A stretch of 64,000 nt of DNA from Earliella scabrosa (lineage: Eukaryota > Basidiomycota > Agaricomycetes > Polyporales > Polyporaceae), in assembly GCA_022605405.1 (NCBI GenBank), contig JABYQQ010000001.1, forward strand, positions 434,001 to 498,000, read 5' to 3'. This document shows, piece by piece, positions 15,835-21,796 of the stretch. The position numbers were made by a program, and so were the translations under genes. Position 1 is the first letter of the stretch; the number at the start of each line of letters is the position of its first letter. The notes under the pieces were generated by a model. The model did not search any database and had not been told where the DNA came from. It saw only the letters and a list, made by a program, of their open reading frames with translations.

Positions 15835-15844
15835 GAGGTGCGAA
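15835..15844. repeat. 10-bp target-site duplication, left copy
   Basis: GAGGTGCGAA immediately precedes the left terminal repeat. The identical 10-mer directly follows the right repeat at 21787-21796. Confidence 0.9.
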
Positions 15845-15970
15845 TAGTCTCGTGACCAGACGTTCGGAGCATGAATCGGAGACGAAAATTCGGAAGTCTC
15901 CGTGCTCCTGAACGTCTGGTGGCTTTACCCCCGTGACTCACCCCTTGGTGACAGGCGTGACGGTCTCGCC
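15845..15970 (+). repeat. Left terminal inverted repeat (126 bp)
   Basis: Reverse complement of 21661-21786 without a mismatch seen by eye. It contains an imperfect palindrome (15855-15920: ACCAGACGTTC ... GAACGTCTGGT, with GGAGCA/TGCTCC and CGGAGAC/GTCTCCG inside) and a 21-codon ORF (15871-15936). It ends 38 bp before the first ATG of the DUF6589 gene, so it must supply promoter or leader sequence. Confidence 0.92.
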
Positions 15971-16007
15971 TCTTCTCCGACTACCCCGAGCTGCTTCTCC
16001 CGCGCCT

Positions 16008-18749
16008 ATGGACGAGTACTCTGCCGACCCGAGTCCGACGGAGCTGCATACCGGCTGGGGCGCGCTCTTCGATGACGGATTCGACGACGACGTTGAGTAC
16101 GCACCTTCGGCTGAGGCAGAATACGATAGCGACCGCCTGTCCGATGATTCCGATTGGGATCCCGTCGAGATCCAGGAGCCCCCCACCCATCCTCCCATCC
16201 AATTACAGCAAACACACGCCCTTCGTGCACGTCTCGAGAATAGTCAATTCTTGAGTATGGTAGAACGTGTGTGTGCAGTTCTCAAATATATGGAAGATCT
16301 CGAGATGAACCTGCCGATCTTTCTGGATGCTCTGAGCTGGGGTGACGATGACTGCATTGTCAACCCGAAGGTTCAGTATGCACGGACCGCGCTCATGGTT
16401 AGTGAAGAGCTCCCGAGAATACTGGACCGGTGGTACAAAGTCCCCCATGCTAGCACCTCCCGAACCCGCCATGTCCGTCCGCAAGGTGCACGCAAGGCCC
16501 TCGAGAAGTTCGCAATGAACTGCGTCGCCGATATCATTGATCGCGAGCTGGAAGCAACTGCGCCGATCTTTCGCTCCAGGAAGAATGCACTTTCGGAAGA
16601 CGGCCTCAAAAGCTTTCAGTTTGCAGAGGTGGCATCGCAGCTAGAGGGGGACTCCGGAGCACCCAACACGTTTGCATTACTACGTGGAGCGATGCATCGA
16701 GCGGTCCGCGGCAAGTCGCAACCTGATACAAGAAGTCGGAAGAACACTATCTACGTGCGTGATTCATGTGTAACAGGTGTAGAATACAACCATCTGAGTG
16801 ACATTGATATTAGAGCACAGTCATGGTGTTCAGCCAGCTCCAATACATGCGCTCGCACAGCTTAACAGCATGGACGAAGCCTCTGACCGTCTTTCTCAAG
16901 GCAAAGGGGGTCTCAGCAAAGGCTCTTGACCTGTTGCACATGCTCGGAATCACAATGAGCCATAGCTGGAGTGTGCGTGCTTACGCCAAAATATCAAGGG
17001 AAGCCATGGAGTTACTGCAACGGATCATTGTCGTGCTCGCATGGTGGCTCGCATACGACAATGTCAACTTCGCGTTCCGAGTCTTCTCCCAACGTCTGGA
17101 CAACCAGTCCCACTTCGACTCTGGCACTACAGGGTCCGTCTTCGTCAAACCCAATGCCCCACAACCACGCCCGATGTCCAGCCCTGCCCTGCAAGAACAG
17201 CGACGCAAGGGACGTCTGGAGCCAATCACCGTCGCTGAGATCATCGAGCTCGAGTCGGCGGCAGCACCACGCGTACATGGACACATTGTCTATGCTGTTC
17301 TCAAGATACTGCTCGACTCTCCTGCCTTCGACTTCGAAACATACAAGCATCGAGACCATCCCGCACTTTCCCCTCCTTCCCCTGTGCGCCGCCTTCCTTC
17401 CGGACCCGAACATATAACAAAACAGTTTGTACTCGGTACGGTGCACATTGATGAGGCCAGCTACGACGGAACCGACGACCTAATCAAAGAATGGCTCCGT
17501 CAGCTGAAGCTCGACACTCCGGAGGAGCTCCGGCGCATGGGAGACGAACGGGTACTCGTATGGATCGGGGACCAGCTCACCGTTGACCGACTCCGAGGAC
17601 TGGCAAACTTGCACGGCGAAGATGACAACGGATACGACCGCTTGGACTGGCTCGTAACCGTGTTCGGATGGTTCCACTTGCAGATGGCGTTCGCAAACTC
17701 TCTCCACCGCCAGTACTTCGGGTCGGGCACGAGCAAGGGACTCCGCGCCGCGTTCGCACTGCTAAACCGGAAGGGACTACAGTCAGTTCAAATCAAGGGA
17801 ACGTTCCACCATCACTTACATGAAGGGATCCTGCACGTCGCCGAGGCCCATATCCGGGACTGCTGGTCCGAGGTCAGTGGGGTGGAGAAGCTGAATGAGC
17901 TCCGTGACCGGTCACCCGAGGAACTCGTTGCACTCGCAGAACGCCTTGTAGACGAGTATGCGTCGAATGAAGCGGTCGAGGATCTAGAAGAGAAGCCGGA
18001 AGGTCAGAGCGACGACGTCATGAGGCAGGCCGTAATGTGGAACCGCGATGTGCTCTACTACCTTGTGCTGCAGCGCGCAATGAAGACAGGGGACGTCGGC
18101 TTGATGGAGGACCTACTTCCACACCTCTTCTTCCGGTTCTGTGGGGGTGGAAACCACAAGTACGCTGTCGAGATCTTGGAGCTGCTGCAAGGCTTGCACA
18201 AAGAATGGACTAACGAAGTCAAGTGAGTACTTGAACTACGTAAACTTTGAGTTACCGACTTACCTAAGACATAGAGAGTTCGTTCGTGAAAACTGTTGGC
18301 TTGTCAATCTGAAGGGCGGTACCGAAGACTTCGCTGCAATCGACCTAGTTGAGGAGCACACTGTGAAGGATGTCAAGGTGACATACCGGCCTAAGGGTCC
18401 GAACTCGTCATGGGACTTGATGAAAGCACGCGCACCTGCAATTCCAACCCTACGATCCCTGGACGAGGACTTCAACCATCAGTTCCGCACGATCTACAGA
18501 GGGACAGGGCACACAGATCCAGAGAAGGAGAAGGACGTACAGAAGCTTACGGAACATTACGCACACGCCGGGCTACACACCTTCCAACCAGGGCGAACAG
18601 TGACGAACTCAGCCGATACTGTCAAAGAGTTCGTCAGTGATGGAGTTCAGACAGCCGCGTCGAAAATCGTACCAAAATGGGTGAAGAAACGGGAGATCTT
18701 TGAGCGCTCCTCGGCGCAGACATGGCCAGCATCGTCTCGCTCGGAGTAG
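16008..18749 (+). CDS. DUF6589-domain protein, candidate transposase of the TIR element
   Basis: Exons 16008-16758, 16821-18222 and 18275-18749 give 875 aa. The first donor (16758/16759) is the only one that keeps frame with the 16820 acceptor and is less certain. The acidic N-terminus (DDGFDDDVEYAP) is followed by the DUF6589 region: FSQLQYMRSHSLTAW, LAYDNVNFAFR, VWIGDQLTVDRLRGL, LVTVFGWFHLQMAFANSL, FHHHLHEGILHVAEAH, GGGNHKYAVEILELL, RENCWLVNLKG, and a C-terminal DLVEEHTVKDVKV block. Candidate acidic catalytic positions, by inference only, are Asp330 (YDN), Asp501 (GDQLT) and Glu701/704 (AVEILELL), spaced like a DDE nuclease. An in-frame GTG inside the TIR (15933) could extend the N-terminus, but the ATG at 16008 is simpler. 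It ends 7 bp from the helicase stop codon. Confidence 0.8.
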
Positions 18750-18756
18750 CGCCGCG

Positions 18757-21552
18757 TCATAGGTCAGAACCAGGGCTTGCGCGGCGAAAGTCAGGTGCTG
18801 GTAGTGGTACATGGGATGGTGTGGGTTGACCGAAGATGTGGGTGGACCGTGATGTGGTCTCAGCAGGTGACGGGGGTGCATAGTACATGGGCGCGGGCTG
18901 ACTTTGAGATATGTAATAATGGCTATGATATCCTGTGTACGGTACTGCCAGATATGGCGATGGGGAGGTTGAAGATGAGGAGATGGGATAGCCAGCAGGA
19001 ACTGGGATGGTCGTGGAAGATGACGCTGCTGGCGTTGTGTATACCGGACCCGTGTAGCAGTAGTACGGTCCGGGCTGTGGCGGCAACGGGTATGGTGTGG
19101 TGGGGGCATTCAACGCTGCGGAGTAACCCATGAGACCTCCATAATGCGCGGTGGTACGGGCCCACTGCGCATACCACCGCCGTGACGCCTCCTCAGCTCG
19201 TGCTTCAGCCTGTTGTGCTTCTCTAGCGGCCTTACGCTGTGCCTTCGCCGCGAGGTTGGCAGCTTGACGTCGCTCGAGATCTTCAGCATCGAGCCTCTTC
19301 ACAAGTTGCAGTACCTCGGCACCATGGATGTCCAGCAGAGCCCATGGGGGTCTGAGAATCGCGCGGAGATCCTCGACCGTCTTGATACCACGACGGTTGG
19401 AAGCGATAGTGCGGAGATTGACGTCGGGGAGGATGTTGGTGGTCTTGAGAGAGGTGTGCTTGTATTTTGAGCGTCGTATTTCTCTGCGCCATTCTGCAAG
19501 CGCTGTTTTGACGTTCTTGAGGTGCTGTCCAGCGCGACGTTGAGGCGATTGACGAGGACGTGCCTGCCCGCCGGCGTGCCGAGAGGGGGTTCGTGGTACA
19601 ACATTGTTGCTGCATCTCTCCGGAGGTGTATTCTCGTCCTGTAACCGTAAGAGCAATATAACAGTAGAGTAAAACACAGGCATACCTGTACAGGGGATCC
19701 GACATGGTCTCCATGGTCGTCATCCTCCGAGTCCACTTCTACCTCGGAGCCCGGGCCATCCGGCGCTTCACCCATGGGAACTCCACCTCCCTCGGCACGG
19801 GTATCTGCAAAGTCGCTCGGCGAGCTTGAGTCGCAGTGTCGCACCTGGGCGTGTTGTCGAGCGCAATTGTCGCAGCAGAGAGTGGGAGTAAGAGCTGCGC
19901 AACATACATGAGCAATGAAGAATAGAAGCACGGCGATATCCGGACGGGCGTCTAACCTTAAACGTACCTGCAGTCCGTGGTGGATTGTCGAAGTACTCGT
20001 CTGCTACCTTGCGCCGGCAGCCCTCTGTTTCGATCCAGGCGCGTAGACTCTCCTCAATAGTCTTCTTGTACTTAGGCTTGTCCTTCTCATCCGGATCCAG
20101 TCTTTCCTCTTCTTCCTCAAACTCAGAGTCACTGGACTCCGAGTCGTCCTCAGGATCTTGGCCGTCCGAGCTCTTCTTTGTGTTCCCACCTCCAACTCTC
20201 TGTACGGCGGATTTCTCCACCACCATCACTGCTCGTGCTTGCACAGATGGGGAACGACCTGCTCGCCCCGCTCGTTGCAGCCAAATCCCGAGACTTTGCG
20301 GGATGCCAAACTGCACCGCCAATTCTATATCTGGTACGTCCATGCCCTGTCACGCCGTGAGCCAGACTCTCTCAGTCGTATGACCATTCCCTGACTCACC
20401 ATTGCAGCAGCCTCCGTTGCGACAAGAACACGTAAATCCCCACGACGGAAGCGCTCCCAGGTACTTGCTCGTGCACTTGCAGCTCTTTTGGCGTGCAGGA
20501 TCCCAATTTCATGCCGTAGCGCTGGCCCGGCGATCTCCCGCAGACGATGCGCCACACCATGGCACTTCTGAAGGGCGTTGACGAAGATAATTGCTCGCGG
20601 TAAGTCGTCTCGAGCTTTGGCACCCTCAACGATGAAGTCAAGTGCAGCGTAGTCATTTGCTGACTTCATAAATCGCATTTCTTGTTTGATATTGGGACGG
20701 TCGTTCCCCAGATTCAAGTGGAACGACCGTGATGAGACGATACCCAGCCGTGAGCGCGCTTCCGCCAAATCGACAGGTGTGAGTGTTGCCGAGGTGGCGA
20801 GGACGGGTACCGGACAGGGAACGAGCGCGCGCAGGGTCGGCAAAGATGTACTGTATTCCTTTCGGAACTCATGTCCCCATTGTGGGATACAATGAGCCTC
20901 ATCTATAATGAAGGCTCCGATTCGACGCGCGAATTTCGGGTCCGAGAGCAGCTTTCGGAACCCGGGATTCTGCGTCATCTCAGGGGAGGCTAGTACTATA
21001 CGGTACTTTCCCCGGGCTACGCCCTATGTAAGTGTCAGCGAACAACGCCTGTCACGAGTCTTACACTAACACGCACCTCTAATAGATGTGTGGAGTATGT
21101 TTCCCTATTCACAGCGGCCGCCGGTACTTTCAGATCTGTGAACCGCCTTTCCTGGGTGATAGATTCTCGTAAGCCCATTGCCAAACCCTTATACTATGTT
21201 GTATCTCTCTTACTTGGTCGGTTTCTAGAGCATTTAGAGGTGAAATGATAATGTACAACTTGTCTGTCTCAACAAAAGCGGGCATGACAAACGGCATTGT
21301 CTTCCCACACCCAGTACCGGCTATGACAGTACAATCGAGCCCCAGTAGTAGAGCCTCCGTGACGTCCAACTGCCATGCATGCGGAGACTTGCCTCCCATT
21401 CGCTCCCGGAACTCCTCGGTAACCTTCAAGCGCGTTGCAACCGAGTCGTATCCTCGAGAGACCCGAGCGGCTTCGCGGGCGGCGTCTAGCAGGGCATACG
21501 AATGGGCGGTTTCTTGATCATGAGAGCGTAGCCGAGAGAAGGCGGGCGACAT
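18757..21552 (-). CDS. RecQ-type DEAH DNA helicase of the TIR element
   Basis: Exons on the minus strand: 21214-21552, 21077-21151, 20400-21023, 19968-20346, 19686-19894 and 18757-19638 (835 aa, all phases close). Helicase motifs in order: Walker A AGTGCGKT (about 78-85), SPLNALETDQ, Walker B/RecQ signature IIDEAHCIPQWGHEFR (about 177), LATSATL, IIFVNALQKC, VLVATEAAAM joined to GMDVPDIE, and QRAGRAGR (370-377). A Cys cluster LCCDNC follows, like the RecQ zinc region. The C-terminal 350 residues are a long extension: acidic, then coiled-coil-like Ala/Glu/Arg-rich, then Pro/Tyr/Ser-rich. It would unwind DNA 3'-5' in the nucleus. Start chosen at 21552; the frame is open upstream into the right TIR. 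Its pairing with DUF6589 inside the TIRs points to a role in transposition or repair. Confidence 0.88.
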
Positions 21553-21660
21553 GCACGCGCAGCGAGATTGATGAGGAAGGCGGACGGCGGTGATGTGGTA
21601 GCTGGAAGAGGATTGTTCTTCTTTTGCGCGTTCGGGCTGTTCGGATTGTGTTCCGATGGC

Positions 21661-21786
21661 GGCGAGACCGTCACGCCTGTCACCAAGGGGTGAGTCACGG
21701 GGGTAAAGCCACCAGACGTTCAGGAGCACGGAGACTTCCGAATTTTCGTCTCCGATTCATGCTCCGAACGTCTGGTCACGAGACTA
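21661..21786 (-). repeat. Right terminal inverted repeat (126 bp)
   Basis: Inverted copy of 15845-15970, with the same internal palindrome at 21711-21776. It lies about 110 bp upstream of the helicase ATG. Confidence 0.92.
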
Positions 21787-21796
21787 GAGGTGCGAA
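21787..21796. repeat. 10-bp target-site duplication, right copy
   Basis: GAGGTGCGAA directly after the right TIR, identical to 15835-15844. Confidence 0.9.

What the first reader, a model, noticed from the sequence alone, without database searches (positions are those of the whole stretch)
15835..21796. Complete DUF6589 + RecQ transposon with 126-bp TIRs and a 10-bp TSD
Seen directly: 126-bp inverted ends without a mismatch, a perfect GAGGTGCGAA duplication, and only two genes inside. This defines a mobile unit at base resolution and ties DUF6589, a family without assigned function, to a RecQ helicase inside one element. I know of no described superfamily with this pair (inference). Intact genes and identical TIRs imply recent activity.
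Basis: partly seen in the sequence, partly recalled or inferred. Interest (0 to 1): 0.95.

Follow-up and report, generated by a model that had tools for sequence, protein, structure and literature searches.

The report
AcademH-type transposon with hairpin ends
A complete 5.9-kb jumping gene in the fungus Earliella scabrosa carries a RecQ-type helicase gene and a gene predicted to encode its cutting enzyme, and likely belongs to the already described AcademH group; its ends, like most tested ends of its relatives, are predicted to fold into hairpins whose paired letters vary between families, which would point to ends recognised by shape.

Summary
It is not an unknown kind: helicase-encoding fungal transposons with 9-10-bp TSDs are already named AcademH (Kojima 2020; I saw only passages citing it). 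Added here: (1) DUF6589 is predicted to be a DDE transposase; the model's best solved matches are Hermes, P element, ISCth4 and RAG1, with D331/D502/E746 conserved. (2) 15 of 18 related elements examined in this genome have perfect TSDs (14 of 9 bp, one of 10). (3) A helicase lies near DUF6589 at 10 of 12 genome places, and both genes are under purifying selection. (4) 13 of 17 tested end segments fold into clear hairpins, with stem sequences differing between families and between ends of one element; two are weak, two have none. Best reading: a cut-and-paste AcademH-type transposon. A RecQ role at the hairpins is inferred. Homology to Academ reference transposases was not testable.

The parts
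15835..15844 (.). left copy of the 10-bp target-site duplication GAGGTGCGAA
15845..15970 (+). left terminal inverted repeat, 126 bp, begins TAGTCTCG
   Evidence: same TIR on C6 and C7
15855..15920 (+). predicted subterminal hairpin in the left TIR (outer stem ACCAGACGTTC / GAACGTCTGGT)
   Evidence: z -7.1; 0 of 300 shuffles as stable
16008..18749 (+). DUF6589 gene, predicted DDE transposase, 876 aa; exons 16008-16754, 16814-18222, 18275-18749
   Evidence: (PF20231 E 6.1e-129); introns GT..AG
17057..17059 (+). codon of predicted catalytic D331 (D317 in P0001)
17570..17572 (+). codon of predicted catalytic D502 (D488 in P0001)
18354..18356 (+). codon of predicted catalytic E746 (E732 in P0001)
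18757..21552 (-). RecQ-type helicase gene, 835 aa; exons 21552-21214, 21151-21077, 21023-20400, 20346-19968, 19894-19686, 19638-18757
21661..21786 (-). right terminal inverted repeat, 126 bp, identical to the left
21711..21776 (-). predicted subterminal hairpin in the right TIR, same stem as left
21787..21796 (.). right copy of the 10-bp target-site duplication

Best explanation
This is a complete DNA transposon, likely of the AcademH group, whose DUF6589 protein is predicted to be a DDE transposase that would cut the element out at its TAGTCTCG ends and paste it into new sites, and whose RecQ-type helicase would help by melting or processing ends that are predicted to fold into hairpins. Shown: TIRs, perfect TSDs at 15 insertions of this and related elements, intact genes, purifying selection on both proteins, and strongly self-complementary sequence at most tested ends. 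Predicted: an RNase H-like DDE fold with a helical insertion as in Hermes and RAG1, and the D331/D502/E746 triad. Inferred: the 9-10-bp stagger is made by this transposase. Inferred and least certain: that the hairpins form in the cell and that the helicase acts on them or on hairpinned donor DNA left after excision.
Confidence: 0.85

Rival explanations
1. A superfamily distinct from AcademH that independently pairs a DDE transposase with a RecQ helicase, for example a KolobokH-like lineage.
For: KolobokH also encodes a RecQ helicase and is described as found only in fungi (passage); no Academ transposase could be compared.
Against: TSDs are 9-10 bp with no fixed motif at 15 insertions (one 9-bp TSD happens to contain TTAA), whereas Kolobok is recalled to duplicate TTAA; AcademH is the lineage stated to make 9 or 10-bp TSDs.
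Confidence: 0.1
2. The hairpins do not form; the palindromes are double-stranded binding sites for a transposase dimer, or lie in the 5' leaders or promoters of the two genes and act in expression.
For: The outer stem CCAGACG/CGTCTGG is partly constant in several families, and the two genes start 37 and 108 nt inside the TIRs.
Against: Inner stems differ between families and between the two ends of L032 and of L030, yet pair within each end; similar hairpins sit at ends of elements of 0.7-0.9 kb, too short to hold either gene.
Confidence: 0.4
3. The RecQ-type gene is a captured passenger with no role in transposition.
For: The 8 short elements and the C7 derivative have TSDs although they are too short to carry both genes (supply in trans would explain this too).
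Confidence: 0.08

Closest known systems
AcademH lineage of Academ DNA transposons (Kojima 2020, Mob DNA 11:15; title and citing passages seen, paper not read)
   Same: fungal DNA transposon, helicase with PF00270/PF00271 domains, TSD of 9 or 10 bp
   Different: no difference shown; the DUF6589 label and hairpin ends are not mentioned in the passages I read, and I cannot say whether the paper itself mentions them
KolobokH
   Same: fungal DNA transposon with a RecQ helicase (passage)
   Different: Kolobok TSD is TTAA (recalled); here 9-10 bp without motif; the helicase here is a separate gene on the other strand
Hermes / hAT
   Same: best structural match of the predicted transposase
   Different: no hAT or BED Pfam domain; TSD 9-10 bp against 8 bp (recalled); helicase present
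IS200/IS605 ends and integron attC sites (recalled)
   Same: ends or sites where the fold matters more than the stem sequence
   Different: those use HUH or tyrosine recombinases; here a predicted DDE enzyme

Membership tests
AcademH | TSD of 9 or 10 bp | tested here: met
   15 of 18 elements examined: 14 of 9 bp, 1 (the window) of 10 bp; 1 none (L036); 2 whose second end was not seen (L029, L038)
AcademH | encodes a helicase with DEAD and Helicase_C domains | tested here: met
   both over Pfam's cut-off; feature from passages
AcademH | DDD/E transposase | tested here: met
   by prediction only: fold match and conserved D, D, E; Foldseek E not below 0.001; no biochemistry
AcademH | transposase homologous to Academ transposases | not testable with these tools
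   no Repbase, Dfam or Academ sequence at hand; defining paper not held
AcademH | occurs in Basidiomycota | tested here: met
   Earliella scabrosa, Basidiomycota; Basidiomycota listed for AcademH
KolobokH | TTAA target-site duplication (recalled) | tested here: not met
   none of 15 TSDs is a 4-bp TTAA
hAT | 8-bp TSD (recalled) | tested here: not met
   9 or 10 bp at 15 insertions
hAT | hAT dimerisation or BED domain | tested here: not met
   PF20231 is the only Pfam family at E <= 0.01 in 37 of 37 members
Helitron | no TIR, no TSD, HUH nuclease (recalled) | tested here: not met
   TIRs and TSD present; no such Pfam domain in the two proteins

The most novel reading that the evidence does not exclude
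These transposons carry structure-coded ends: between an outer TAGTCTCG and an inner CGTCTGGTG that stay constant in the window, L032, L030 and short-element families lies a hairpin whose stem sequence is free to change but whose fold is kept, and the element's own RecQ helicase together with a DDE transposase reads or processes that fold. It would be a DDE cut-and-paste system that recognises folded DNA, comparable in logic to attC sites or IS605 ends.
Probability: 0.22. Interest if true: 0.82.

Novelty: new member of a known kind. Interest (0 to 1): 0.5.

Why it matters
It gives Pfam DUF6589, labelled as of unknown function and with 198 and 822 hits in two searches of mostly Agaricomycete proteins, a concrete predicted function: a transposase with a named catalytic triad. 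It supplies an intact autonomous element with short partners that could be tested. The varying terminal hairpins make a clear question testable: why would a cut-and-paste transposon carry its own RecQ-type helicase?

Tried and rejected
Tried without result: reading Kojima 2020 and the fungal cut-and-paste survey, not held. Held papers with the word DUF6589: none; PF20231 occurs only in an unrelated optics paper. Searches for subterminal hairpins in transposons with helicases and for RecQ or Academ transposons in basidiomycetes: I saw nothing on such ends in the listings or in the passages opened. Relatives in viral contigs and prokaryote genomes: none confirmed. PDB by sequence with the DUF6589 profile: none at E <= 1. 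Animal relatives: not reached; the searches list only the best 120 hits, and the named DUF6589 hits there are fungi, many others being unnamed.

Rejected: E691 as third catalytic residue - invariant in A1 but kept in 1 of 15 distant rows. E667 is harder to exclude: kept in 37 of 37 and 13 of 15 rows, but Y and L in L031 and L029, which both keep E732; E732 also lies in the helix that follows the last strand of the model. TSDs of 10 bp at L037 and L032: the tenth matching base is the terminal base of the element, so I read 9. Dating by TIR identity (see full report).

Rows dropped and results against: one search used 17 end segments of 12 elements; not folded there were C6 and C7 (same stem as window), L047, L050, L054 and the other ends of L055-L058, mostly near-duplicates; one of these, the right end of L058, has a partly lost stem (own-arm score 6 against 13 with the arm of L056). 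L058-left and L057-left are weak (11 and 19 of 300 shuffles as stable), and in the swap test L046-left and L058-left are not best with their own arm. In the first swap test (15 ends, several closely related) own was the single best of its row in only 6 of 15, and ungapped matches differed little (8.3 own, 6.5 swapped); only the summed gapped score was beyond all permutations. A possible end of L038 shows no strong hairpin. L029, L036, L031 and L037 ends were picked because a hairpin or terminal motif had been seen, so their z-scores are not blind. The 27 matches (two are L032's own ends) were not fetched.

Full report
Observation. The window holds an element at 15845-21786 (5,942 bp) with 126-bp exact inverted repeats and a 10-bp duplication GAGGTGCGAA directly outside. 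The organism is Earliella scabrosa (Basidiomycota, Polyporales): the protein P0001, identical to my gene model except around the first intron, lies on a contig of 5,425,013 bases, the length of the window's contig C1.

Genes. DUF6589: 876 aa in three exons, PF20231 at E 6.1e-129. Helicase: 835 aa in six exons on the other strand, DEAD and Helicase_C above cut-off, RecQ zinc-binding domain below cut-off, best PDB sequence hits bacterial RecQ, BLM and WRN. The two genes end 7 nt apart. Gene models are mine, from open frames and GT..AG introns; no RNA was available.

Copies and target sites. The TIR search of the whole genome gave 8 matches: the window, a copy on C6 whose two ends are 24.7 kb apart because about 18.8 kb of other DNA lies in its helicase gene, a 2.8-kb derivative on C7 with one further internal piece, and a 41-bp piece on C16. 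PF20231 gave 20 matches at 12 places, 11 of them over the cut-off. A helicase match lies within the fetched stretch at 10 of 12 places (and the window): convergent at 8, divergent at 2 (L029, L040), absent at L039 and L041, whose DUF6589 matches are weak. Perfect TSDs were found at 15 of 18 elements examined: window 10 bp; C6, C7, L030, L031, L032, L037 and 8 of 8 short elements (708-933 bp) 9 bp. L036 has both ends but no TSD. Of L029 the second end lies outside what I could fetch, and of L038 only a possible end was seen.

Cross-species pairing. Of the 76 best helicase hits (74 bear names, all fungi), 21, the window's own included, lie on a contig of the same length as one of the 120 listed DUF6589 hits; 15 of the best 20 do. 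Contig length is a proxy for contig identity. No foreign fungal DNA could be read, so TIRs elsewhere are untested.

Selection and age. Window against the C6 copy: 91.2% identity over 5.5 kb and 97.3% over the last 446 bp. DUF6589: 97 synonymous and 30 non-synonymous differences, pN/pS 0.09, no stops. Helicase: pN/pS 0.18 overall and 0.08 in the core, pS 0.27 and 0.36. Introns differ by 7-25%. Yet the two TIRs show 0 of 126 differences each and the adjacent 37 and 108 nt show 0 and 1. Either the ends are under extreme constraint or they are homogenised; in both cases TIR identity does not date an insertion.

Hairpin ends. From nt 11 of the element each window TIR contains a long predicted hairpin. 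Pattern searches TAGTCTCG-N-CGTCTGGTG found 15 and 27 genome matches against 0 for the reversed pattern. In L032 and in L030 the two ends of one element have different stems at the same position; short elements, L029, L031 (left), L037 (left) and L036 have further ones, the last four with other flanks. Of 17 end segments tested, 13 are more stable than all 300 dinucleotide shuffles, 2 are weak (11 and 19 of 300 as stable), and 2, the right ends of L031 and L037, have no hairpin. In a swap test over 11 distinct stems, own-arm complementarity averages 15.4 against 7.2 for swapped arms, own is the single best of its row in 9 of 11, and 0 of 200,000 permutations reach the observed sum. An earlier version with 15 ends, several closely related, gave 0 of 100,000 for the sum but own best in only 6 of 15 rows. 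So pairing within an end tends to be kept while stem sequence changes; the case is strongest for the autonomous elements and weak for some short ones. Some ends were chosen after a hairpin or motif had been seen. In the 64-kb window only five perfect stems of 11 bp or more with loops up to 200 exist, two of them these.

What is known. A passage in PMC10045372 states that AcademH makes 9 or 10-bp TSDs and AcademX 3 or 4, linked to the helicase and nuclease they encode. Passages in PMC10799480 tie AcademH to PF00270/PF00271 helicase domains and report it at low copy number in Basidiomycota, Ascomycota and Mucoromycota, and cite Kojima 2020 by title. PMC9587614 (passages) describes KolobokH with a RecQ helicase. 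I conclude AcademH-type, with the homology test to Academ sequences left open. Whether Kojima 2020 mentions hairpins I cannot say.

Mechanism. Shown: ends, TSDs, coding capacity, selection, self-complementary ends. Predicted: DDE catalysis, hairpin folding. Inferred: cut-and-paste with a 9-10-bp stagger. Inferred and least certain: the RecQ-type helicase melts the hairpin ends, or deals with hairpinned donor ends such as Hermes- and RAG-like enzymes leave (recalled).

Noticed in passing
TSDs of 15 insertions: The first base of the TSD, read with the transposase side on the left, is G in 12 of 15 (window G 29%; binomial 6e-5, seen after looking at all positions), while the last base shows no matching C excess (5 of 15). 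Orientation of the C7 derivative is not certain.
   Followed up: partly
C6:1412188-1430953 (L033-L035): The sister copy has about 18.8 kb of other DNA in its helicase gene, with TCACGATGATTCA-type inverted repeats near both edges; identity not determined.
   Followed up: no
C1, C2, C4, C6, C7, C11, C12, C20, C21, C23 and C33: Twelve short pairs of ends, in ten cases about 0.6 kb apart, carry the two different hairpins of L032, one at each end; at C20 one pair lies inside another; C33 has a single end.
   Followed up: partly
L029 (C5) and L040 (C10): DUF6589 and helicase genes point away from each other, unlike the convergent order at the other 8 places.
   Followed up: no
window 15971-16007 and 21553-21660: Non-coding DNA next to the TIRs is nearly identical between window and C6 copy (1 of 145 differences) although introns differ by 7-25%.
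   Followed up: partly
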